9,407 nt of DNA from NCBI GenBank assembly GCA_002506255.1, contig DAXF01000029.1, positions 836 to 10,242 of the forward strand, read 5' to 3'. A model generated the notes under the pieces. That model worked only from the letters and a program-made list of their open reading frames with translations, was not told the DNA's origin and made no database searches. A program made the translations under genes and the position numbers. Source of the DNA: Methanomassiliicoccaceae archaeon UBA367. Lineage in GTDB: Archaea; Thermoplasmatota; Thermoplasmata; Methanomassiliicoccales; Methanomethylophilaceae. Shown here in pieces: positions 1 to 9,407 of this stretch (position 1 is its first letter; every line of letters starts with the position of its first letter).

Positions 1-2336
1 TTATCTGCTGCTTTGCGCATCCATTCCGCCGCTTTATCCAGGTCCTTCTCGACGCCCCTGCCGTCGCGGCAAGCCCTGGCTAAACGACCCATAGCGGTAG
101 TGTCACCGTTCGTTGCGTGGTATGTATAGATGCATATAGCACGCTCGATATCGCCCTCCGAACCCTTTATCAAATTATCAGCCATACTGACTGTGTGTGA
201 AAACCGACGCAATTGCTTTGGTTTTCCAATAATACATTGAGGGCTTACGGCTTCTCTGATGGATGTTTTTGATATCACACCTTGATTTCCGTGATATTCT
301 CCCCTACAGTATGTCAAAAAACCCCTCTTAAAACACACTATCTCATGATACCTGTGAATCTCCTCGTAATCTAGTATGCGTTCCGTACCTTGTGTTGAAA
401 AGACACCTTTGTTAAAATCGATATAATCAATATTCTCGAGCGCATATTCGTTGCCTGCGGTATCCTTTAGACATATCTGAGTCCAACTATAACGCGACGG
501 TTCATAACTGGTCGGAGTATCTCCTTCCTCGATTTGAACTCCTATTTCAGAATTACAACTAGACCCCCGTCTGATGGCTACGTTCCCGGAACGGAAGTCC
601 GTTGATGTTGTAAACGTGTCGCCATGTCTGAGTTCAATAACTTTTGTTTCTCCATCCCAGGAATGCAACTCGATTGATATGGAAATAGAATCTGGTTCCT
701 CTGCATTAAAAGAACAAACGTATCTTTTTTTTGCGTCCAAATATATATTCACGTCATCGATGAAAACTTCTTGGTCGACTCCCATCTGAATGCAACCACT
801 CGAATATACACTATTTGCGGGCCGACATTCACAGTTCGCATCGTCTATGGAGAAATGGTTTTTATTATGGCTGCAGACAATTAGTGGAGCGTTTCCAAAT
901 TGCCCCCAATTCCCCTTGGCATGCCTTTCTGCTATACAACTCGAATTCCTGCGAACATAATTGGGACCTGTCCCTCCAAATACTAGCGCTAACTTGCATT
1001 TAGTGACCAGGTGCGTCGCAATCAGATAACGCTCACCCTGAATCAATTTTCCGAATGGTTCTGTTATGTCATTATTAAAGAGAGTAGCATTGAGCGTTGA
1101 AACTTTTTTGAAGCGCATCTGTTCTATGGCGAACATTTTGTCTCCAAAACGATTTTTGAAAAAATCATACACCTCCTGATCCTCAGTACTTAGGTAAATA
1201 TGTGCGAAACCAAGGTTCTTCATTCTTTCTTCCACAATCTCAACTAATTCATACTCATCCAAAGGCACAGGGTGATTATATGGTTGAATAGAGACATAAT
1301 CCGTTCCGCGAGCAATCACCCCGATTGTTCTATCCCAACCGTTAAAGTTTTTAAATTCGGCATCTATCCTGTTATTGAGCGTGTCAGAGAGTGTCAGAGG
1401 CAGATCGGGGGGTGTGCGCTTCTTCGGCTTCGGGGACGTCCAGCGGGATATTATTACTTCCTTTCGAGTATATGCTTCATCCAGGGTCAGTGATGAAACG
1501 GGTTTGATGTAATAATGCCACGGGTTATAGCGACCAATATCACCATGATCAATCATCATAGAGTCATGATTTTGCATATCAACAACATAATCGCACTTCG
1601 ACTTGTCCTCTCCCTTGAAACTCTTGAAAAAATTGTAATGCCATATCAAGCCGTTTGTTTCATAAGGTACGACAACCCATGCTTTCTTGTCTGATACCTC
1701 TTTACCGAAGTCACATACTATTGCGTCCCCATCGAACTTTTCTTTATCAAGGTATCTTTTTGCGGTGATTATCTTATCGGCTGATATGCCCTCCGATATA
1801 AGCCCGTCCCTGATTGCAAATGAGTCGTAAATGTTTGCAACCAAAATTTTATCGTAATCCTCACAGCCTTCATTGTATCCTACTTGACCTTTGTCCTCGT
1901 ATGAGAAACCAACAACATTGTAATGCGTAAATGGGAATAAATGAACCAAGAGCCACATGGATTTACCATTGAACTTGTAAACGAACAATCGCTCTTTCTT
2001 CCGTTTGTCTATCACCAAACCTTCCGGAATGTTCTCGAACTTTCGTTCCCGGTTCGATAGCATTGCAAGAGATTCGAATTTGGCGTAGACATTGTGGTCT
2101 TTTGCTTTTTTGTACCATTCCAACGCTTTCGACGCATTTTTTCTAACGCCTTTGCCGTCACGGTACATGCGGGCAAGCCACAACATTGCATTGTAGTCCC
2201 CTGCCTCCGCCCTCTCCTTGCAGTAACCTACCACATCTGAGTCCTCGGTAAGAGGATTTTTGAAAAATAAGCACATCCTTTCTCCAAAATCCATATGCAG
2301 GCTCCCTGTAGCTTCTTTGTTCACATCACCGGACAT
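1..2336 (-). CDS. Sel1-repeat / fucosyltransferase-like / jelly-roll-like multidomain protein (3' end outside window)
   Basis: I translated this frame by hand: 778 codons run without a stop from ATG at 2336 to the window edge, so the C-terminus is missing. Residues about 35-90 hold a Sel1-like repeat (LARMYRDGKGV, then ALEWYKKA), and about 728-778 hold another (MGRLARACRDGRGV, then KAAEWMRKAA). Residues about 336-410 (GVIARGTDY, HPVP, IYLSTEDQEVYDFF, FGDK), followed by ERYLIATHLVTKCKLALVFGG near 435-455, resemble the donor-binding half of GT-B fucosyltransferase-like (NodZ/O-fucosyltransferase type) proteins. Residues about 160-195 (YDKILVANIYDSFAIRDGL) look like a small Rossmann-type segment. 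Residues about 500-615 are beta-rich and Cys-containing and end in GVQIEEGDTPTSYEP, a motif common in carbohydrate-binding-like domains of phage tail proteins. No signal peptide or membrane segment is evident. ATG at 2294 is an alternative start with an upstream GGGAG. The gene lies 99 bases after rfbE on the same strand and is AT-richer than most neighbours. A role in glycan transfer is inferred; the substrate is unknown. Confidence 0.8.
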   Translation of the reverse strand, partial: MSGDVNKEATGSLHMDFGERMCLFFKNPLTEDSDVVGYCKERAEAGDYNAMLWLARMYRDGKGVRKNASKALEWYKKAKDHNVYAKFESLAMLSNRERKFENIPEGLVIDKRKKERLFVYKFNGKSMWLLVHLFPFTHYNVVGFSYEDKGQVGYNEGCEDYDKILVANIYDSFAIRDGLISEGISADKIITAKRYLDKEKFDGDAIVCDFGKEVSDKKAWVVVPYETNGLIWHYNFFKSFKGEDKSKCDYVVDMQNHDSMMIDHGDIGRYNPWHYYIKPVSSLTLDEAYTRKEVIISRWTSPKPKKRTPPDLPLTLSDTLNNRIDAEFKNFNGWDRTIGVIARGTDYVSIQPYNHPVPLDEYELVEIVEERMKNLGFAHIYLSTEDQEVYDFFKNRFGDKMFAIEQMRFKKVSTLNATLFNNDITEPFGKLIQGERYLIATHLVTKCKLALVFGGTGPNYVRRNSSCIAERHAKGNWGQFGNAPLIVCSHNKNHFSIDDANCECRPANSVYSSGCIQMGVDQEVFIDDVNIYLDAKKRYVCSFNAEEPDSISISIELHSWDGETKVIELRHGDTFTTSTDFRSGNVAIRRGSSCNSEIGVQIEEGDTPTSYEPSRYSWTQICLKDTAGNEYALENIDYIDFNKGVFSTQGTERILDYEEIHRYHEIVCFKRGFLTYCRGEYHGNQGVISKTSIREAVSPQCIIGKPKQLRRFSHTVSMADNLIKGSEGDIERAICIYTYHATNGDTTAMGRLARACRDGRGVEKDLDKAAEWMRKAAD

Positions 2337-2435: not shown

Positions 2436-3452
2436 TCATACCTCGTCAACCCATCTTAGCATCGATGATATTCCTTCCGTCGCACTAACTTTGGGCTTCC
2501 AACCGATGTCATTGCTTATCTTCCCCACGTCGGCGACGAACACCTTCTGATCTCCCAGCCTGGGCGGCAGCTTTTCGTACTTCATATCCACACCCAATTC
2601 CCTGTTCAGAATATCGAACAGTTCCAAAAGCGAAAGGGACTGCTCCATGGTACCTCCTATGTTGTAGATCTTACCGGAAACCACGTCGCGTTTTTCGAGT
2701 GCGGTGTAATAAAGCGATATCATATCCTCTGCATGGAGTATATCTCTAACCTGTTTTCCACCGCCTGAGATTGTAAACCGTTCTTTGATGCCGTTGCTCA
2801 GGTCCAAGGCCTTCTTGCAGAACCACCCTACCCAGCCCTGATCGAATGTGGCGAACTGTCTGGACCCATACATGGATGAGTGCCTGAATACTGTGGTGTT
2901 GAGCCCGAATGTCCTTGAATAATCACGCATGTATTGATCCGCTGCCCCTTTAGAACAACCGTAAGGCGAACTGAAATCCAACGGAACGGACTCGTCAAAA
3001 CCGTTAGGGAACTCTTCACAGATAAAGCGCGTTGGTTTTTCTGTATAAGTGTACTGATCAAGGCTTCCGTATACCTTGTTCGTAGACGAGAAAAAAATGT
3101 GCGTCTTCGGACTGTGTTTGCGTACCGCCTCCAGTGTGTGCAATGTGCCCATCGCATTGATCTGGAAATCCTTATACGGATCGGCTATGGATGTCGTCAT
3201 TGCAACCTGTCCTGCCATATGGAATATCGCATCGTAGTTTCCGTTTCGTACCACATTCTCAACATCTTCTTTGTTTCTGACATCCCCGGGTATGAACTCG
3301 AACCCGCCCCTGGTCTTAAGCCATGATAGATTCTCCAAGGTTCCGGTACGTGAAAGATTATCGAAGACTGTAATATCATACCCTTTATCTATCCCATAAG
3401 AAGCAAGATTGCTCCCAAGGAATCCGCATCCGCCGTTAATCAGTATTTTCAT
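2436..3452 (-). CDS. rfbE: CDP-paratose 2-epimerase (CDP-tyvelose epimerase)
   Basis: This 338-residue extended short-chain dehydrogenase/reductase would interconvert CDP-paratose and CDP-tyvelose at C2, using tightly bound NAD+ in the cytoplasm. Visible features are the Rossmann motif GGCGFLGSNLA (residues 7-17), the segment GQVAMTTSI near 81-89, SSTNKVYG (122-129) with the catalytic Thr/Ser region, and the YxxxK pair Y164/K168 in SPYGCSKGAADQYM. The stretches VFRHSSMYGSRQFAT, DQGWVGWFC and QVRDILHAEDMISLY match my recollection of the Salmonella Typhi enzyme closely, and the length is as expected. I chose the ATG at 3452 rather than 3491 because the Rossmann fold starts there, a GAGGT site lies 6 bases upstream, and it forms an ATGA overlap with rfbS. 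It is the last gene of the rfb cluster. Specificity for paratose rather than another CDP-hexose is inferred from similarity and context. Confidence 0.93.
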   Translation of the reverse strand: MKILINGGCGFLGSNLASYGIDKGYDITVFDNLSRTGTLENLSWLKTRGGFEFIPGDVRNKEDVENVVRNGNYDAIFHMAGQVAMTTSIADPYKDFQINAMGTLHTLEAVRKHSPKTHIFFSSTNKVYGSLDQYTYTEKPTRFICEEFPNGFDESVPLDFSSPYGCSKGAADQYMRDYSRTFGLNTTVFRHSSMYGSRQFATFDQGWVGWFCKKALDLSNGIKERFTISGGGKQVRDILHAEDMISLYYTALEKRDVVSGKIYNIGGTMEQSLSLLELFDILNRELGVDMKYEKLPPRLGDQKVFVADVGKISNDIGWKPKVSATEGISSMLRWVDEV

Positions 3453-4285
3453 CTTCTTACCTCGCACATGGTTCTCAGCCCATCTTTCCAATTAATTTTC
3501 GCCTCAATGCCGTAGAGTTTCATAAGTTCAACATCTGCAACCGAGTCGGGCTCCCCTGGCCTCATCGGAACGGCACCATACATAAGATCTGATTGGGAAT
3601 CACATACCATTTTCATATAATCTGTGATTTCACAGATTGTCGGTGCATCCCCTGTGCCCAGAGGGATATCGTGGTATCCTGATTTGTCAATATCAAAAAT
3701 CATTCTTTTTAGATTACAAATCACGTCATCAATATGAATCAGATCTCTTTTTTGGGTGCCCTTCGTTAATTTTACAGATTCTCCGGCCTTCAGCTTCTCT
3801 ATGACTTCCGGGATAAAACGCCCGGGCGGCTCATTAGGCCCATAATATGTTTCGAGTATCACATTATAGAATGAGAGTTTCTTTTGCTTAGCCGTTAGCC
3901 AGCGTCCATAATCAGAGAACATCTTTTTTGTATATGTGTATTCGTTGAAGCCCTCGGGGAGTCCAGTACCTATTGTAACCACTTTTTCTACTCCGATATC
4001 GACGCATTTGGACAGTACCCGCAAAGGGTCACAGAGGTTCGATTCGATGATGTCTTTACTACATTCTGAGTTCTTAATGTACTTGCATGAAAGATTGACA
4101 AAAACATCTATAGGTCCGGTAAGACCACTCAGAGATTCGACTGACACTATTTCGGCACCGGCATCCCTGATTGCTCTGACATCAGATGTTGGTCTTACTG
4201 CGCAATATACATCATTTTCGCGTGCAATGTCTAATACAAGTCTCGTACCCACATATCCTGTACTGCCAAGCATCAGTATTTTCAT
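3449..4285 (-). CDS. rfbS: CDP-paratose synthase-like 4-ketoreductase
   Basis: This 278-residue NAD(P)-dependent short-chain dehydrogenase/reductase probably reduces the C4 ketone of CDP-3,6-dideoxy-4-ketoglucose to CDP-paratose. It shows an N-terminal GSTGYVGTRL dinucleotide motif (residues 7-16), IGTGLPEG (105-112), which aligns with the catalytic Ser/Thr region of RfbS (CGTSLPP), the YxxxK pair Y116/K120, then LETYYGP and LTKGTQKRDLIHIDDV (compare SGLQQRDFLYIKDL in Salmonella RfbS). The length is nearly that of the 279-residue Salmonella Typhi enzyme. The start overlaps the rfbH stop as ATGA, with a GAGG about 10 bases upstream. The gene is clearly AT-richer than its neighbours (30-40% GC in lines counted by hand), which hints at a separate origin. 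The alternative is abequose synthase (RfbJ, the C4 epimer). Paratose is preferred because the next gene is a paratose 2-epimerase. Similarity to RfbS is moderate, so the exact stereochemistry is inferred. Confidence 0.8.
   Translation of the reverse strand: MKILMLGSTGYVGTRLVLDIARENDVYCAVRPTSDVRAIRDAGAEIVSVESLSGLTGPIDVFVNLSCKYIKNSECSKDIIESNLCDPLRVLSKCVDIGVEKVVTIGTGLPEGFNEYTYTKKMFSDYGRWLTAKQKKLSFYNVILETYYGPNEPPGRFIPEVIEKLKAGESVKLTKGTQKRDLIHIDDVICNLKRMIFDIDKSGYHDIPLGTGDAPTICEITDYMKMVCDSQSDLMYGAVPMRPGEPDSVADVELMKLYGIEAKINWKDGLRTMCEVRR
3459..3463 (-). promoter_or_regulatory. Ribosome binding site of rfbE
   Basis: The minus strand reads GAGGT, then 6 bases, then ATG at 3452. The site lies inside the end of rfbS and supports the 3452 start over the in-frame ATG at 3491. 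It fits translational coupling across the ATGA overlap. Confidence 0.65.
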
Positions 4286-5616
4286 GATTTCAGAGCCTCG
4301 AGGATAATCTTCCCAATGTAATCTGTAATCTCATCAGTCATTCCCGGATAGACGCCGACCCAGAACGTACTGTTCATTATCTTGTCGGTATTTTTCAGAT
4401 CGCCTATCATGCGATATCCCTCACCGGTCTTTCGCATCCCGTCGAAACACGGATGTTTGATCAGATTGCCGGCGAACAGCATTCTCGTTTGTATTCCTTT
4501 ATTCTCTATGTACGAAACGATCTTCTTCCTGTCTACGCCCTCTCTGCACGTGATGAGGAACCCGAACCAGCTCGGTTCGCTTCCATCCAGAGGCTCCGGG
4601 AGCACGATCTTGCCCTCCGCATCTTTGAGTATGAGTCTCAGCCTTGTGAAGTTATGTCTTCGCTTTTCCACAAATCCTGGAAGCTTTTCCAGCTGGGCGC
4701 ATCCTATCGAAGCCTGCAGATCGGTCGCTTTCAGATTATATCCGAAATGAGAATAAACGTACTTGTGGTCGTATCCCAAAGGAAGATCGCCGTACTGCCT
4801 GTCGAATCTGTGCCCGCACAGGTTGTCCTGCCCTGATGCGCAAGAACAGTCTCTTCCCCAGTCTCTGAGGGAACGGACTATCTTGTTCAGTTTATCGTTG
4901 TTGGTATAAACCGCACCGCCTTCTCCCGTGGTCATATGGTGTGGCGGATAGAAGCTCGAGGTGCCAATGTCACCGATAGTCCCTGTAAAATATTCCCTGC
5001 CTTTGTATGCGTATCGTGAGCCCAAAGCGTCGCAGTTGTCCTCTATCAACCACAAATCGTTCCTGTCACAGAAATCCTTGACCCGCTCGATGTCGAACGG
5101 ATTTCCAAGCGTGTGCGCCAGCATGACAGCCTTTGTCTTTTCTGATAGAGCCTTTTCTAATTGATACGTATCAACGTTGTACTGAGGTATTGTAACATCC
5201 ACAAAAACCGGTATTGCACCGTACTGGATGATTGGAGTGACCGTGGTCGGGAATCCGCAGGCCACCGTTATGACCTCATCGCCGGGATGCACCGCGCGTT
5301 CCCCCAGCATAGGAGATGTGAGTGCCATGAAGGCAAGAAGATTCGCAGAAGAACCGGAGTTCACAAAACTGCAGTGTTTCACACAAAGATATTCTGAGAG
5401 CTTCTTCTCGAACAGGTCTGTATATCTTCCCGAGGTCAGCCAGAATTCGAGTGCAGAATCCACGAGGTTGACCATCTCCTCCCAGTCGTAAACGCGGGAG
5501 GCGTAAGGTACGCGGTCGCCCTCTGAGAATGACCTTCTTTTATGATACCTTTCACAGTATCTTCCTACGAGCTCCAGTATCTCTCTCTTCGCCTGTTCCT
5601 TATCGGTATCGGTCAT
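4282..5616 (-). CDS. rfbH: CDP-4-keto-6-deoxy-D-glucose 3-dehydrase (E1; PLP and [2Fe-2S])
   Basis: This 444-residue DegT/AscC-type enzyme removes the C3 hydroxyl of CDP-4-keto-6-deoxyglucose through a PMP-bound glucoseen intermediate, which a separate reductase then reduces. The diagnostic residue is visible: in SFYPPHHMTTGEGG the lysine that would hold PLP in related aminotransferases is His226. The iron-sulfur ligands are C257, C259 and C267 (a CxCx7C pattern in RDCSCASGQDNLCG) with C195 in EDNCDALGS. Other family blocks are NSGSSANLLA (87-96), YDHKYVYSHFGYNLKATDLQASIGCAQLEK and FAGNLIKHP. About 61 residues separate C195 and C257; I recall about 57 in the enterobacterial enzymes, the difference lying in the AYKGREYF loop. 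The start abuts the rfbG stop (TGA directly followed by ATG) with GGGTGAG just upstream. No partner reductase gene is present in this window. Confidence 0.95.
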   Translation of the reverse strand: MTDTDKEQAKREILELVGRYCERYHKRRSFSEGDRVPYASRVYDWEEMVNLVDSALEFWLTSGRYTDLFEKKLSEYLCVKHCSFVNSGSSANLLAFMALTSPMLGERAVHPGDEVITVACGFPTTVTPIIQYGAIPVFVDVTIPQYNVDTYQLEKALSEKTKAVMLAHTLGNPFDIERVKDFCDRNDLWLIEDNCDALGSRYAYKGREYFTGTIGDIGTSSFYPPHHMTTGEGGAVYTNNDKLNKIVRSLRDWGRDCSCASGQDNLCGHRFDRQYGDLPLGYDHKYVYSHFGYNLKATDLQASIGCAQLEKLPGFVEKRRHNFTRLRLILKDAEGKIVLPEPLDGSEPSWFGFLITCREGVDRKKIVSYIENKGIQTRMLFAGNLIKHPCFDGMRKTGEGYRMIGDLKNTDKIMNSTFWVGVYPGMTDEITDYIGKIILEALKS

Positions 5617-6681
5617 TCACTCACCCGCATATTCTTCGATCTGCGATTCCATGCATCCTGCCACATCGCCGTCGTTCACCCAGACCTCTGTCCATTCGAC
5701 CGTCTTTTTCACAGCCTTCTCGATATTCCATTTCGGAGAGAATCCTATCCTGGATTTCAAAAGAGAATTGTCCAGCTTCAGGAACGTAGCCTCGTGAGGC
5801 CCGTTCTCCTTGGTCCCCTCCCATTTCAATCCTCTGCCCCATATATCACAGAACATCGTCGCCAGTTCCCCAGTCGTTATGCAGTCTGAATACTCCGGAC
5901 CGATATTGTAGCTTCCTGCCTTTTTTATGTTTTCAGACTGGCATTTCACTATCCCCAGATAGCCGAAGAGAGGCTCCAATACGTGTTGGTAAGGTCTTAT
6001 GGAGGAGGGATTGCGCAAACGTATCGGCGTTCCGGAATATGCCGCCCTCACACAGTCCGGGATTATGCGTTCAAAGGCGAAATCCCCTCCGCCTATGACA
6101 TTCCCCGCCCGGGCTGTGGATATAGCACATCTCCCGTCGGCAAAGAAGCTCTTCCTGTAACTGCTCGTGATGATATCGGAACAGCTTTTGGAGTTGGAAT
6201 ACGGATCATGTCCGTTGAGGGGATCAATCTCCCTGTAGCCGTAGTCCCATTCTCTGTTCTCATATACTTTATCGGTAGTTACATTAAGGAAGGATTTGAC
6301 ACAGTCGTTCGAACGGACACATTCAAGGACGTTCACTGTGCCCATCACATTCGTTTCATATGTGTATCTCGGATCTTTGTAACTGTCCCTGACTAGCGGC
6401 TGTGCCGCCATATGTATTACGATATCCGGTCGAACCTCTGAAAAGAAATTCTCCATTGAGCGGATGTCGCGCACGTCCGCATATTTGGAACGGACGAAGG
6501 AATCCGCATTGATTATCTCATAAAGGTTCGGATCCGTGGGCGGTTTCAGTGAATAGCCGTAAACGTCCGAACCCAGGATATCCAGTATCTTGCACAACCA
6601 GGATCCCTTGAAGCCCGTGTGCCCGGTGACCAGGACCTTCTTTCCTCTGAAATGGTCGGACAGCGTCACCAGGTTTTCCAT
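5617..6681 (-). CDS. rfbG: CDP-glucose 4,6-dehydratase
   Basis: This NAD+-dependent extended short-chain dehydrogenase/reductase converts CDP-glucose to CDP-4-keto-6-deoxyglucose. With the chosen start it has 354 residues, close to the roughly 359 of Salmonella RfbG. Visible blocks are TGHTGFKGSWLC (19-30), MAAQPLVRDSY (91-101), NVMGTVNVLE (111-120), the catalytic TTDKVYENREW (135-145), DPYSNSK with Y161/K165, ARAGNVIGGGDFA and RPYQHVLEPL. An in-frame ATG at 6744 would add 21 residues inside the rfbF coding sequence. It has a GGAGG 9 bases upstream, but that GGAGG simply encodes part of rfbF (HGG). I prefer 6681 because family members begin about 15-20 residues before the Rossmann glycines, and GGAAGG precedes it. 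The chosen start overlaps the rfbF stop by 16 bases. The function is secure; the start is less so. Confidence 0.94.
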   Translation of the reverse strand: MENLVTLSDHFRGKKVLVTGHTGFKGSWLCKILDILGSDVYGYSLKPPTDPNLYEIINADSFVRSKYADVRDIRSMENFFSEVRPDIVIHMAAQPLVRDSYKDPRYTYETNVMGTVNVLECVRSNDCVKSFLNVTTDKVYENREWDYGYREIDPLNGHDPYSNSKSCSDIITSSYRKSFFADGRCAISTARAGNVIGGGDFAFERIIPDCVRAAYSGTPIRLRNPSSIRPYQHVLEPLFGYLGIVKCQSENIKKAGSYNIGPEYSDCITTGELATMFCDIWGRGLKWEGTKENGPHEATFLKLDNSLLKSRIGFSPKWNIEKAVKKTVEWTEVWVNDGDVAGCMESQIEEYAGE

Positions 6682-7436
6682 GGTGCCTTCCCCGAATCCC
6701 ATAGCGCCTGCAGACCCTCTTTGTCGCGCATTGTGTCCATGCATTGCCAGAAGCCTCCGTGCCTGTACGCCATCAGCTCCCCCTCGGAAGCCAGACGTTC
6801 TATTGGCTCTCTTTCGAATACAGTGGAATCACCCTCTATCATTTCGAACACATCGGGCTCCAAGACCATGAATCCGCCGTTTATCCATCCCGAATCCTCG
6901 GCGCTCTTCTCCCTGAAGGCCGTGATCGCGTCGCCTTCCATATCCATCATCCCGAAACGCCCTGCCGGACGTACGGCCGTGAGGGTGGCTTTCTTCTTGT
7001 GCTTTTTATGGAATGATACAAGCTCATCCAACCGCACGTCGGAAACGCCGTCACCGTAGGTCATGCAGAACGTCTCGTCCCCTATGTGTTTGGCTATTCG
7101 CTTTATGCGGCCGCCGGTCATGGTATTCAGTCCCGTGTCAATGACGGTAACCTTCCACGGCTCCGAGTCGTCCCTGTGCAACGTAACGTATCCTCCGTTT
7201 GTGAAATCGAAGGTCATGTCGCTGCAACGCATGGCATAATCCCTAAAATATTCTTTAATCATATGCTGTTTGTATCCTGCGCAGATCACGAAGTCCGTTA
7301 TTCCGTGCGAAGTATACATCTTCATGATGTGCCAAAGGATCGGCTGTTCGCCTATCTCTATCATAGGTTTTGGCCTGAGGTGGCTTTCCTCCGAGATCCT
7401 GGTTCCGAAGCCTCCGGCAAGTATTACGGCCTTCAT
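6666..7436 (-). CDS. rfbF: Glucose-1-phosphate cytidylyltransferase
   Basis: This 256-residue enzyme makes CDP-glucose and pyrophosphate from CTP and alpha-D-glucose-1-phosphate, the entry step for CDP-3,6-dideoxyhexoses. The N-terminal nucleotidyltransferase signature is LAGGFGTRISEESHLRPKPM (residues 6-25), with the RPKP lysine at 23. It is followed by ILWHIMKMYTSHGITDFVICAGYK, the YGDGVSDV metal-binding region, GRFGMM, INGGFMVLEPDVFEMI and the typical C-terminal FWQCMDTMRDKEGL. Length and block order are those of RfbF/DdhA, not RmlA. It is the first gene of the minus-strand cluster. No Shine-Dalgarno sequence precedes its ATG; instead a TATA-like box lies about 30 bases upstream, suggesting a leaderless or near-leaderless transcript. 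Confidence 0.96.
   Translation of the reverse strand: MKAVILAGGFGTRISEESHLRPKPMIEIGEQPILWHIMKMYTSHGITDFVICAGYKQHMIKEYFRDYAMRCSDMTFDFTNGGYVTLHRDDSEPWKVTVIDTGLNTMTGGRIKRIAKHIGDETFCMTYGDGVSDVRLDELVSFHKKHKKKATLTAVRPAGRFGMMDMEGDAITAFREKSAEDSGWINGGFMVLEPDVFEMIEGDSTVFEREPIERLASEGELMAYRHGGFWQCMDTMRDKEGLQALWDSGKAPWKTW
6686..6691 (-). promoter_or_regulatory. Probable ribosome binding site of rfbG
   Basis: The minus strand reads GGAAGG, 4 bases before the ATG at 6681, inside the end of rfbF. The spacing is short, so this supports the 6681 start only weakly; the competing ATGs at 6702 and 6744 remain possible. Confidence 0.4.
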
Positions 7437-7461
7437 GGTAAAACGAATGAGAATGGATGTG

Positions 7462-7472
7462 TTTTATTATAT
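7462..7472 (-). promoter_or_regulatory. TATA-like box of the rfbFGHSE cluster
   Basis: The minus strand reads ATATAATAAAA, centred about 31 bases before the rfbF ATG at 7436. Archaeal TATA boxes usually sit about 26 bases before the transcription start, which would place the start within a few bases of the ATG. That fits the missing ribosome binding site. This is inferred from sequence only. Confidence 0.5.
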
Positions 7473-7516
7473 GGTTTCTTTCTGAATTGAATAGAAATTT
7501 GAGATGCGTTTTCTCA

Positions 7517-7532
7517 TTTAAAAAATAATATA
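7517..7532 (+). promoter_or_regulatory. TATA-like box upstream of rmlA
   Basis: The plus strand holds a 16-base A/T run, TTTAAAAAATAATATA, the strongest TATA candidate facing rmlA. With usual archaeal spacing, transcription would start near 7550, leaving a leader of about 70-95 bases. Because the run is A/T on both strands it could also serve the opposite direction. Confidence 0.4.
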
Positions 7533-7643
7533 CCGGTTATGTTAACACTCATAAGTGGCGGGTGTGGTTTTGAAGACGGAGAAAGTTGTTTTTCATGATC
7601 CAACAAGATTAGGGATTAATACATGAATGGATGTTTGCTATTC

Positions 7644-8507
7644 ATGAAGGGCATAATCCTGGCCGGTGGCCTTGGTACAAGGCTCTACCCGGCCACGGTG
7701 CCCGTTCCGAAATGCCTTTTACCGATATACGACCGGCCGATGATCTTCTTCCCCTTATCCACTTTACTGCAGGCTAACGTAAGGGATATACTCATAATCA
7801 CGACCCGCCGCGACCAGGAAGGATTCATGCGACTATTGGGAGACGGTTCCAATCTCGGCATAAGGATAAGCTACGCCGTTCAGGACGTTCCCCGCGGAAT
7901 AGCAGACGCGTTCCTCATCGGAGAGGAATTCATCGGCGGCGATGACGTGATACTGATACTGGGGGACAACATCTTCCACAGCAGGACCATCGAATCATCT
8001 TTGAAAGACTCCATCGTGAATAACGAAGGCGCCACCGTATTCGGCATCGACGTTCCCGATCCGGAGCGTTTTGGTGTCATTGATTTCGACGAGAACTTCA
8101 ACGTCATATCGATAGAAGAGAAACCCGCCGTCCCGAAATCCAATACTGCGGCGGTGGGCCTGTACATATACGACGGCAACGTCTCGGAACACGCTAAAAC
8201 ACTGAAACCCTCTCCACGCGGTGAGCTGGAGATAACGGATCTCAATAACATCTATCTTAGGGACGGGAAGCTGAAAGCAAGACAACTTGACGGCGATTCC
8301 GTATGGTTCGATGCCGGCACCCACGAATCGCTGTTATCGGCAAGTGTTTTCGTATACAACATAGAGCAGGCCGGCGGGAAGATATCCTGCCCGGAGAAGA
8401 TAGCTTTGGAGAAGGGATACATCACGCCAGATAAGTTGAAAGAGATCGTCTGCGATAAGAAGAGCAGCTATTACGTACGGATAAGATGCGAATGCGGCAT
8501 CCGCTGA
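7644..8507 (+). CDS. rmlA: Glucose-1-phosphate thymidylyltransferase (RmlA type)
   Basis: This 287-residue nucleotidyltransferase would form dTDP-glucose (or UDP-glucose) from glucose-1-phosphate. Signature blocks in order are LAGGLGTRLYPAT (residues 6-18), VPKCLLPIYDRPMIFFPLS with Lys23, QDVPRGIADAFLIGEEFIG, ILILGDNIFHS, FGVIDFDENFNVISIEEKP, SNTAAVGLYIYD, RGELEITDLNNIYL and VWFDAGTHESLLSAS. These match RmlA/RfbA rather than RfbF or GalU. Small departures from the usual bacterial form are QDVPRGIADA where QPSPDGLAQA is common, and FDAGT where LDTGT is common. I chose ATG 7644 because LAGG motifs normally begin a few residues after the start; ATG 7623 would add seven residues and has an AGGGA upstream. 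No rmlB, rmlC or rmlD lies in the window, so the downstream dTDP-sugar is unknown. It is transcribed away from the rfb cluster. Confidence 0.92.
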   Translation: MKGIILAGGLGTRLYPATVPVPKCLLPIYDRPMIFFPLSTLLQANVRDILIITTRRDQEGFMRLLGDGSNLGIRISYAVQDVPRGIADAFLIGEEFIGGDDVILILGDNIFHSRTIESSLKDSIVNNEGATVFGIDVPDPERFGVIDFDENFNVISIEEKPAVPKSNTAAVGLYIYDGNVSEHAKTLKPSPRGELEITDLNNIYLRDGKLKARQLDGDSVWFDAGTHESLLSASVFVYNIEQAGGKISCPEKIALEKGYITPDKLKEIVCDKKSSYYVRIRCECGIR

Positions 8508-8510
8508 TCA
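8505..8510. other. Back-to-back stop codons of converging genes
   Basis: The six bases TGATCA contain the plus-strand TGA of rmlA (8505-8507) and the minus-strand TGA of the isomerase (8510-8508). There is no intergenic base, so any terminator of either gene must lie inside the coding sequence of the other. Confidence 0.9.
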
Positions 8511-9407
8511 AAGATCCGGAACGCGCTGTTTTACGCCCGCCTTCATATTATTCTCCATCTCCTTCTTCAGGGAGACGATGGGCTTCACCTCTATCGGATT
8601 CACACCCCTAAGCTTAGCCAAACGGTAGGAAACATGATCCCCCAGCATCAAGGCCTTAAGGAAGCATTCGGTCCTGTTCCTGCCATCCATCGTCACCTGG
8701 TAGAATGGCACACCGTTCTTCTCCAACGTAGCGTTAGTGGACTCCGGTATCCCGTTCATGCATTCAGGATACACATTAGGCATCAGCAGAAGAGGCAACA
8801 GCTCCTCCCTGGGCGTTTCCGTCCATCCCACGATCTCATTGTGATTGAACTCCGGCATGGTCCAGCTGAAGGACGAGATCTTGGAGTTCTCCGCCAGCTG
8901 AGAGCGCCAGCGCATGGCTACGGACGAAGCGGGCTCGTCAACGCATATGATAGGTATCTTATCGTGAATGGCCTCAGATATTCTTATGGCCGCGTTATCG
9001 CCGTCATCTTCGTTCAGTGCGTTATTGTAATCTCTCAGGCGGGGTATTGTATCTCTGATCATTCCCGCCACGTCCGTCCCGGCGGCCAGGTCCATCATCC
9101 TGCTGATGTAGCCGATCATGAATCCTATCGATTGGCGGGGCTGTATGCCTGCCGGCACTTTCACGACAAAGTCTCCGCGTTCCTTTGCGATCTTCTCGAT
9201 CTCACCGCCGGAGCATATGACGGCCACGGGACATCCCGTGCCCGCGGCCTCCCTGTACATGCTCAGCGTCTCATGAGTATTGCCGGAATAGCTTGCCACC
9301 ACGGCAAATGTCCTTTTAGATACCCATCCCGGCAGGGACGGGTATCTGAGCACCTCTATCGGAATGTCAGATACTTCCACGCAAAGATCCGCTACCACAT
9401 CGCCGGA
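8508..9407 (-). CDS. Bifunctional phosphoglucose/phosphomannose isomerase (N-terminus outside window)
   Basis: This SIS-domain isomerase interconverts glucose-6-phosphate, fructose-6-phosphate and mannose-6-phosphate, supplying glycolysis and sugar-nucleotide synthesis. The reading frame continues past the right edge: the first visible codons are Ser-Gly-Asp, then VVADL, which fits the end of the family's N-terminal GMGGS...SGD phosphate-binding region. About 40-50 N-terminal residues are therefore missing, and the GTG at 9398 is an internal valine codon rather than the start. Visible blocks are VASYSGNTHETL, ICSGGEIEKIA, VKVPAGIQPRQSIGFMIGY, MRWRSQLAENSKI, PEFNHNEIVGW (which by family analogy carries a catalytic Glu) and FLKALMLGDHVSYRLAKLRGVNPIEVKPI. 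Family members usually end shortly after VKPI..LK, so the last 15 or so residues (MENNMKAGVKQRVPDL) are an extension abutting rmlA. Confidence 0.92.
   Translation of the reverse strand, partial: SGDVVADLCVEVSDIPIEVLRYPSLPGWVSKRTFAVVASYSGNTHETLSMYREAAGTGCPVAVICSGGEIEKIAKERGDFVVKVPAGIQPRQSIGFMIGYISRMMDLAAGTDVAGMIRDTIPRLRDYNNALNEDDGDNAAIRISEAIHDKIPIICVDEPASSVAMRWRSQLAENSKISSFSWTMPEFNHNEIVGWTETPREELLPLLLMPNVYPECMNGIPESTNATLEKNGVPFYQVTMDGRNRTECFLKALMLGDHVSYRLAKLRGVNPIEVKPIVSLKKEMENNMKAGVKQRVPDL

What the first reader, a model, noticed from the sequence alone, without database searches (positions are those of the whole stretch)
2436..7436. Complete-looking CDP-tyvelose gene set in an apparently archaeal genome
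RfbF, RfbG, RfbH, RfbS and RfbE homologues occur in pathway order in one compact cluster. Tyvelose is best known from Salmonella serogroup D and Yersinia O-antigens. A full set in a gut-type methanogen would mean an archaeal surface glycan carrying a 3,6-dideoxyhexose, possibly mimicking bacterial or immune-recognised epitopes. The enzyme assignments come from visible motifs; the final sugar and the organism are inferred.
Basis: partly seen in the sequence, partly recalled or inferred. Interest (0 to 1): 0.7.

Follow-up and report, generated by a model that had tools for sequence, protein, structure and literature searches.

The report
Tyvelose sugar operon in rumen methanogen
A methane-making archaeon, probably from the rumen, carries a five-gene operon, apparently acquired from gut bacteria, that should make tyvelose, a rare sugar best known from the surface of Salmonella and Yersinia.

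Summary
RfbF, RfbG, RfbH, RfbS and RfbE homologues lie in pathway order at 2436-7436 as one coupled operon. F, G and H pass curated NCBIfam cut-offs. RfbE best matches Salmonella tyvelose epimerase and keeps 17 of 17 checked residues. RfbS is remote from characterised reductases; its catalytic loop fits paratose synthase, but the tree does not exclude the abequose type. RfbS and RfbE co-occur: 12 of 14 bacterial genomes with this RfbS have RfbE, and in 200 Lachnospiraceae genomes the same two carry both. CDP-tyvelose is the likely product.

The host is probably a Methanomassiliicoccales archaeon: the neighbouring isomerase is 90% identical to that of RumEn M2, and the rfb genes resemble it in codon usage. 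Nearest named relatives of RfbS and RfbE are gut Bacillota, so lateral transfer is likely.

Corrections: the set is not complete, since the RfbH partner reductase RfbI is absent, as it is near the bacterial cassettes. An archaeal tyvelose epimerase is already in print (PMC13098431). Surface display and epitope mimicry are untested.

The parts
6666..7436 (-). rfbF, glucose-1-phosphate cytidylyltransferase
   Evidence: TIGR02623 412.7 bits, cut-off 300.25; best PDB match 1tzf
5617..6681 (-). rfbG, CDP-glucose 4,6-dehydratase (likely start 6681; the longest ORF starts at 6744)
   Evidence: TIGR02622 419.2 bits, cut-off 278.45; PDB matches 1wvg and 1rkx
4282..5616 (-). rfbH, CDP-4-keto-6-deoxyglucose 3-dehydrase (E1); His kept in the SSFYPPHH stretch; 3 of the 4 clustered Cys seen in the Yersinia enzyme
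   Evidence: NF011936 698.3 bits, cut-off 423; 3bcx alignment; motif table
3449..4285 (-). rfbS, CDP-3,6-dideoxy-4-ketohexose 4-reductase, probably of the CDP-paratose synthase type
   Evidence: PF01370; 26% identity to Salmonella RfbS; GT-x-LP loop without the RfbJ-type insertion; tree
2436..3452 (-). rfbE (tyvE), CDP-paratose/CDP-tyvelose 2-epimerase
   Evidence: 1orr E 3.8e-143 and 9rl0 E 8.3e-140; 17 of 17 checked residues as in Salmonella TyvE
7437..7622 (.). intergenic region between divergent rfbF and rmlA; a TATA-like ATATAATA lies about 30 nt before the rfbF start, with no obvious Shine-Dalgarno sequence
   Evidence: sequence printed; the promoter reading is inference, no chance control was run
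3..2336 (-). downstream ORF (cut by the window end): Sel1 repeats around a middle domain that may be a FUT8-like glycosyltransferase; candidate user of the sugar
   Evidence: Sel1 PF08238 60.3 bits; residues 251-460 match a protein directly after rfbS in L036; two other relatives hit FUT8_N_cat below its cut-off, the L036 one does not
7623..8507 (+). rmlA, glucose-1-phosphate thymidylyltransferase (neighbour, dTDP-sugar pathway)
   Evidence: TIGR01207 365.3 bits, cut-off 360.65
8508..9407 (-). phosphoglucose/phosphomannose isomerase (cut by the window end); taxonomic marker
   Evidence: PF10432; TIGR02128 184.2 bits, below its cut-off 213.9, in this truncated copy; 90% identity over 86% of the query to RumEn M2; tree

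Best explanation
This is a CDP-tyvelose operon in a Methanomassiliicoccales archaeon, probably taken laterally from gut Bacillota and since adapted to the host's codon usage. RfbF makes CDP-glucose from glucose-1-phosphate and CTP. RfbG removes water to give the 4-keto-6-deoxy sugar. RfbH, a PMP and iron-sulphur dehydrase, removes the 3-OH with electrons from an unlinked donor, since RfbI is not here. RfbS reduces the 4-keto group to CDP-paratose. RfbE inverts C-2 with its bound NAD to give CDP-tyvelose. A glycosyltransferase, possibly the downstream Sel1/FUT8-like protein, would then place tyvelose on a surface glycan. Shown here: gene identities, order, coupling, residue conservation in RfbE, association of RfbS with RfbE, archaeal neighbour gene, codon usage. 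Inferred: activities, final sugar, electron donor, surface use, direction of transfer.
For: RfbF, RfbG and RfbH exceed equivalog cut-offs. RfbE's top solved match is Salmonella TyvE; it has the same residue as Salmonella TyvE at 17 of 17 sites named in PMC7851689, and the split {window, Bacillota, Salmonella} against {T. atlanticus, Azospirillum} has support 99/97. RfbS shares loop length and GT-x-LP with annotated Salmonella CDP-paratose synthase and not with RfbJ. Of 14 named Bacillota loci with this RfbS, 9 have RfbE directly downstream and 3 elsewhere in the fetched stretch; in their whole genomes 12 of 14 have RfbE at E 1e-60 or better and 14 of 14 have RfbH over cut-off. In 200 Lachnospiraceae genomes RfbH is in 69, RfbE in 2 and RfbS in the same 2. 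L029 and Salmonella serovar India have the same F-G-H-S-E order. Host: the neighbouring isomerase is 90% identical to RumEn M2 and groups with it; codon-usage correlation of the window rfb genes is 0.69 with the window isomerase and 0.19 with seven pooled Bacillota rfb genes.
Against: No RfbI relative in the window. RfbS is only 26% identical to Salmonella RfbS (92 bits, against 78 for RfbJ); its best match among the reference reductases is an Azospirillum protein (113 bits) that itself is closest to RfbJ, and one Bacillota relative, L042, scores higher to RfbJ (118) than to RfbS (99), while P0008 does the reverse (85 and 121). The tree does not resolve RfbS from RfbJ (89/18). The sugar pocket is the same in T. 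atlanticus TyvE, which converts CDP-glucose (PMC7851689), and Ser230 is found in 41 of 42 rows, Azospirillum included, so residues do not prove the substrate. Two of 14 RfbS genomes lack RfbE. Of the two genomes with both genes in the 200-genome draw, one is its centre and both were first found through RfbS. The rfb codon usage also correlates 0.42 with Bacillota locus L042. The window's genome is not held, and near relatives P0001-P0005 and P0089-P0095 carry no taxon name.
Confidence: 0.73

Rival explanations
1. The operon stops in effect at CDP-paratose or makes CDP-abequose: RfbS has another stereochemistry or RfbE is not used, so the glycan carries a different 3,6-dideoxyhexose.
For: RfbS is remote from both characterised reductases, some scores lean to the RfbJ side (Azospirillum reductase, L042) and the tree does not separate them. 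Two of 14 RfbS genomes have no RfbE. PMC13317340 predicts paratose alone in Clostridium butyricum from RfbF, G, H and S (passages seen).
Against: RfbE is intact, overlaps rfbS by 4 nt and keeps 17 of 17 checked residues. RfbJ has a loop 6 residues longer without GT-x-LP. Abequose would leave RfbE without a substrate of the right C-4 configuration (inference from the docking in PMC7851689).
Confidence: 0.15
2. RfbE works as a CDP-glucose/CDP-mannose 2-epimerase, as the T. atlanticus enzyme does, and feeds a mannose pathway rather than tyvelose.
For: T. atlanticus TyvE has the same sugar pocket and converts CDP-glucose (PMC7851689, section 9 read); 9rl0 is the second PDB match.
Against: RfbE follows RfbG, RfbH and RfbS in one operon; RfbE and RfbS co-occur; the tree sides with Salmonella TyvE; PMC7851689 states that Yersinia TyvE does not react with CDP-glucose (passage).
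Confidence: 0.06
3. The window is a chimeric metagenome contig that joins an archaeal isomerase gene to a bacterial rfb cluster.
For: RfbE is about 70% identical to many other proteins, the named ones among them bacterial, and the window's genome is not held.
Against: The rfb genes resemble the isomerase in codon usage more than they resemble Bacillota rfb genes; RfbS and RfbE each form a supported clade of unnamed near relatives apart from the named Bacillota; a TATA-like box and no visible Shine-Dalgarno sequence precede rfbF.
Confidence: 0.05

Closest known systems
Salmonella CDP-tyvelose block with F-G-H-S-E (serovar India, record NZ_CP022016.1)
   Same: Same gene order and same 4-nt S/E overlap; RfbG 44%, RfbH 54% and RfbE 61% identical
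   Different: An RfbI-like ORF lies beside rfbF there (named by position and recall), absent here; RfbS only 26% identical; RfbH there has the fourth Cys; bacterial O-antigen cluster
RfbS/RfbE cassettes of gut Bacillota (L029-L042)
   Same: Nearest named relatives: RfbE 62-71% in 12 loci, RfbH 62-74% in 6 loci, RfbS 33-42% in 14 loci; no RfbI relative in the fetched stretches
   Different: Bacterial hosts; lower GC3 in the seven genes measured; contiguous F-G-H-S-E only in L029, and in L034 with a 540-nt gap, the other stretches being split or partial
TyvE of Thermodesulfatator atlanticus and of the archaeon Methanocaldococcus villosus (PMC13098431, passages seen)
   Same: Same epimerase family; an archaeal TyvE is thus already in print
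   Different: The T. atlanticus enzyme accepts CDP-glucose; the M. villosus sequence and gene context were not examined here; the window enzyme sides with Salmonella TyvE
CDP-abequose block with RfbJ (Salmonella Abortusequi record CP075030.1)
   Same: Shared RfbF, RfbG and RfbH steps
   Different: RfbJ has a 6-residue longer loop without GT-x-LP, and no RfbE lies in the 5.9 kb fetched

Membership tests
CDP-tyvelose biosynthesis pathway | RfbF glucose-1-phosphate cytidylyltransferase | tested here: met
   TIGR02623 412.7 bits over cut-off 300.25
CDP-tyvelose biosynthesis pathway | RfbG CDP-glucose 4,6-dehydratase | tested here: met
   TIGR02622 419.2 bits over cut-off 278.45
CDP-tyvelose biosynthesis pathway | RfbH 3-dehydrase with His where aminotransferases have the catalytic Lys (recalled criterion) | tested here: met
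   NF011936 698.3 bits over cut-off 423; HH kept as in 3bcx and Salmonella
CDP-tyvelose biosynthesis pathway | RfbI/E3 reductase that feeds electrons to RfbH | tested here: inconclusive
   No match at E 1e-3 in the window or in loci L029-L042; the window's genome is not held; of 14 Bacillota genomes with RfbS, 10 have no match and 4 only weak partial ones
CDP-tyvelose biosynthesis pathway | C-4 reductase of the RfbS/RfbJ family | tested here: met
   BLASTP E 1.4e-25 to Salmonella RfbS and 2.3e-20 to RfbJ, in a set of ten sequences
CDP-tyvelose biosynthesis pathway | That reductase is RfbS (paratose) and not RfbJ (abequose) | tested here: inconclusive
   Loop motif and length as in RfbS; tree unresolved (89/18); the Azospirillum RfbJ-like reductase scores higher than Salmonella RfbS (113 against 92 bits)
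CDP-tyvelose biosynthesis pathway | RfbE/TyvE 2-epimerase with catalytic Thr-Tyr-Lys and CDP-binding residues | tested here: met
   17 of 17 sites as in Salmonella TyvE
CDP-tyvelose biosynthesis pathway | CDP-tyvelose or tyvelose detected | not testable with these tools
   Needs enzyme assay or sugar analysis
Methanomassiliicoccales (host) | Neighbour gene of that order | tested here: met
   Isomerase 90% identical to RumEn M2 over 86% of the query, grouped with it; taxonomy
Methanomassiliicoccales (host) | Genome-wide placement by marker genes | not testable with these tools
   No whole genome held for the window

The most novel reading that the evidence does not exclude
A rumen methanogen builds a tyvelose-bearing surface glycan with an RfbI-free version of the pathway, in which RfbH with three clustered cysteines takes electrons directly from the cell's ferredoxin pool, and a Sel1-repeat protein with a FUT8-like domain attaches the sugar. 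Archaeon and neighbouring Bacillota would share a 3,6-dideoxyhexose coat through gene transfer.
Probability: 0.25. Interest if true: 0.65.

Novelty: new member of a known kind. Interest (0 to 1): 0.42.

Why it matters
Tyvelose is treated as a signature of Salmonella and Yersinia, and PCR of its epimerase gene is used to detect Salmonella (PMC13098431 passage). PMC7725333 (passages seen) places tyvelose, paratose and abequose mainly in those genera and finds most rare sugars absent in Archaea. An F-G-H-S-E operon in a gut archaeon, with the same genes in gut Bacillota, would show that this sugar is shared across domains, that tyvelose genes in gut metagenomes do not by themselves point to enterobacterial pathogens, and that archaeal surface glycans can be built with laterally acquired O-antigen chemistry. 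It also raises a testable question: how RfbH is reduced in anaerobes without RfbI.

Tried and rejected
Chimeric contig: judged unlikely from codon usage and coherent near-relative clades. Phage or provirus origin: scans of viral contigs with the isomerase, RfbE and the Sel1 protein found no relative, though the short patterns used reach close relatives only; the RfbH scan found 28 loci with RfbH-like genes, none with an RfbS or an RfbE of more than 33% identity in my table. RfbS in the phage collection had one match at 25% identity. CDP-glucose/mannose epimerase and abequose readings: see rivals. A wider archaeal survey was not possible: the single genome-contig scan used one short pattern that, by my reading, the window's own RfbS does not fit, and returned 14 Bacillota loci and three weak partial matches, L043-L045; no archaeal genome handle was available. 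My first table of loci used a mis-framed RfbG query, so RfbG genes there are labelled as weak RfbE; one search repeats it correctly for 18 of the loci. A structure model of the middle domain of the Sel1 protein had mean pLDDT 41.7 and is not used. The Sel1 protein had no match among plasmids. PMC5011839 (ISO4-H5 genome, term look-up only) had no passage on CDP sugars. Paper searches, judged by listed titles and abstract starts except where passages are cited: tyvelose with archaea, methanogen and rumen, CDP-tyvelose with Methanocaldococcus, CDP-tyvelose or paratose epimerase (20 of 25 listed), paratose or glucoseen reductase (15 of 72 listed), dideoxyhexose with archaea, Methanomassiliicoccales with glycosyltransferase terms (12 of 315 listed). 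None reported a tyvelose operon in a methanogen; this covers only the held open-access library. One search was uninformative: none of the 10 papers listed held the enzyme term.
Full report
Observation. The window has five minus-strand genes in the order rfbF, rfbG, rfbH, rfbS, rfbE between 7436 and 2436. RfbF, RfbG and RfbH pass the curated NCBIfam cut-offs for glucose-1-phosphate cytidylyltransferase, CDP-glucose 4,6-dehydratase and RfbH; RfbS and RfbE pass none. RfbE's best solved relatives are tyvelose epimerase of Salmonella Typhi (1orr) and of Thermodesulfatator atlanticus (9rl0). RfbS matches the general epimerase family only. The junctions are a 16-nt overlap, directly abutting, and two 4-nt overlaps (coordinates, contexts), so the five genes look like one translationally coupled operon. 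Salmonella serovar India has the same order F-G-H-S-E and the same 4-nt S/E overlap.

Host. Beyond rmlA lies a phosphoglucose/phosphomannose isomerase gene. Among 83 homologues the only close one with a name is from Methanomassiliicoccales archaeon RumEn M2, 90% identical over 86% of the query, and a quick tree of 63 rows (most of those 83) puts the two in one eight-row group with SH-aLRT 100 (taxonomy). Codon usage of the pooled rfb genes correlates 0.69 with the isomerase and 0.55 with rmlA, but 0.19 with seven pooled Bacillota rfb genes (-0.01 with those of L029, 0.42 with those of L042); the downstream Sel1 gene is unlike the isomerase (0.03). A TATA-like box lies about 30 nt before the rfbF start with no visible Shine-Dalgarno sequence, which fits an archaeal short-leader promoter, though no chance control was run. 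No whole genome is held for the window.

Source. A scan of one genome per species with an RfbS alignment gave 17 loci, 14 of them with full-length RfbS, all from Lachnospiraceae, Oscillospiraceae/Ruminococcaceae or other Clostridia; two titles name rumen or omasum (L038, L042), others carry isolate names that I recall as rumen series. RfbE there is 62-71% identical to the window's (12 loci) and RfbS 33-42% (14 loci). L029 has the exact F-G-H-S-E order; L034 has it with a 540-nt gap before rfbS. In an RfbS tree of 50 rows (29 of the 88 homologues, the 14 loci, the window and six references) the window falls inside the supported 44-row family that holds all 14 Bacillota loci; in an RfbE tree of 42 rows (25 of the 120 listed homologues, 12 loci and references) it is likewise nested among Bacillota. 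Lateral transfer from Bacillota is the simplest reading; its direction is inferred from the spread of the genes in the named genomes, and archaeal genomes could not be surveyed.

Which sugar. RfbF, RfbG and RfbH are shared by several CDP-dideoxy sugars, so RfbS and RfbE decide. RfbE has the same residue as Salmonella TyvE at 17 of 17 sites that PMC7851689 (section 9 and passages read) names for catalysis, cofactor and substrate binding; the split that sets T. atlanticus and Azospirillum apart from Salmonella, Bacillota and the window has support 99/97. The one varying site, 230, is Ser in 41 of 42 rows and His in T. atlanticus only. Because the sugar pocket is the same in T. atlanticus TyvE, which works on CDP-glucose, residues alone do not settle the substrate. 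RfbS is 26% identical both to annotated Salmonella CDP-paratose synthase (92 bits) and to CDP-abequose synthase RfbJ (78 bits). Against my reading, its best match among the reference reductases is an Azospirillum protein (113 bits) that is itself nearest to RfbJ, and L042 is nearer RfbJ (118 against 99 bits), while P0008 is nearer RfbS (121 against 85). In the alignment 20 of 21 family rows have the loop GTGLP, P0025 has DTALP, Salmonella RfbS has GTSLP, and RfbJ and the Azospirillum reductase have a 6-residue longer loop of other sequence. The tree does not resolve RfbS from RfbJ (89/18).

Association. Of the 14 loci, 9 have rfbE directly after rfbS and 3 have it elsewhere in the fetched stretch. 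Searching the 14 whole genomes finds RfbE in 12 (E 1e-60 or better) and RfbH over cut-off in 14. In 200 Lachnospiraceae genomes RfbH passes in 69, RfbE at E 1e-90 or better in 2 and RfbS at E 1e-25 or better in the same 2. One of these, G001, is the centre of the draw and both had been found through RfbS, so this shows association but is a small sample. Association with RfbE argues for the paratose stereochemistry, since RfbE needs CDP-paratose.

What is missing. The classical pathway needs E3 (RfbI), a flavin and iron-sulphur reductase that feeds RfbH (recalled; PMC7851689 also lists E3 among the enzymes for CDP-paratose synthesis, passage). In Salmonella serovar India an unlisted 324-residue ORF, RfbI-like by position and recall, lies next to rfbF. 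No relative of it is in the window or in any other of the loci held at that point, L029-L042 included. In the 14 Bacillota genomes 10 have no match and 4 have weak partial ones, best E 2.4e-10 at 28% identity. These anaerobes thus probably use another electron donor. RfbH of the window also lacks one of the four clustered cysteines of the Yersinia enzyme (3bcx); that position is cysteine in only 3 of 36 comparison rows, L002 and the two Salmonella rows (L019 aligns with a gap there, and a 37th row, L030, did not reach the region), so the change is common in the family and not a sign of decay.

Use of the sugar. Directly after rfbE comes an ORF with Sel1 repeats around a middle domain. Residues 251-460 or parts of them match four places in two of the 14 genomes, one of them a protein that directly follows rfbS in L036. 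Two of these relatives hit the FUT8 catalytic domain below its cut-off, E 6e-4 and 1e-3; the L036 protein and the window protein do not. A role as glycosyltransferase is a lead only; the structure model was too poor to use.

Known context. PMC7725333 (passages seen) surveyed 303 archaeal genomes, says most rare-group sugars are absent in Archaea and names Salmonella enterica, Yersinia pestis and Y. pseudotuberculosis as the main holders of tyvelose, paratose and abequose. PMC13098431 (passages seen) counts TyvE of the archaeon Methanocaldococcus villosus among characterised TyvEs, so an archaeal TyvE is not new. PMC13317340 (passages seen) predicts paratose from RfbF, G, H and S in Clostridium butyricum. 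No listed paper describes this operon in a methanogen, within the held library.

Verdict. An intact-looking CDP-tyvelose operon lacking RfbI, very probably in a rumen-type Methanomassiliicoccales archaeon and of bacterial origin. It is a known kind of system in an unusual host. The exact dideoxy sugar, surface display and epitope mimicry remain untested.

Noticed in passing
window 4282-5616; loci L001-L048: The third cysteine of the RfbH cluster (CxCx3Cx3C in Yersinia and Salmonella) is replaced in the window and is Cys in only 3 of 36 comparison rows. The iron-sulphur ligand set of this family may differ from that of the Yersinia enzyme.
   Followed up: partly
window 3-2336: Sel1-repeat protein whose middle domain is related to proteins of Bacillota sugar clusters, two of which hit FUT8 below cut-off; also a weak sub-threshold PI-PLC-X match at residues 555-597.
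   Followed up: partly
L001 3151-9134: A contig classed as viral has RfbF, RfbG and RfbH (67, 59 and 73% identical) followed by a thiamine-diphosphate-type enzyme and a reductase, which looks like a branched CDP-sugar pathway (yersiniose or cillose type by recall) rather than tyvelose.
   Followed up: no
L048 677-9903 (Azospirillum oryzae plasmid): RfbF-G-H-reductase-RfbE with a second reductase further on that is closest to RfbJ (34%); the two reductases suggest another dideoxy sugar or two products.
   Followed up: no
200 Lachnospiraceae genomes (family of G001): RfbH passes its cut-off in 69 of 200 genomes, though RfbS and RfbE are in only 2; other CDP-deoxy sugars that use RfbH seem common in this family.
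   Followed up: no
L046, L050 (NZ_CP022016.1) and L047 (CP075030.1): Two Salmonella records filed as plasmids of 473 kb and 302 kb carry O-antigen sugar gene clusters; a 324-residue RfbI-like ORF of the first is not in the PLSDB gene table.
   Followed up: no
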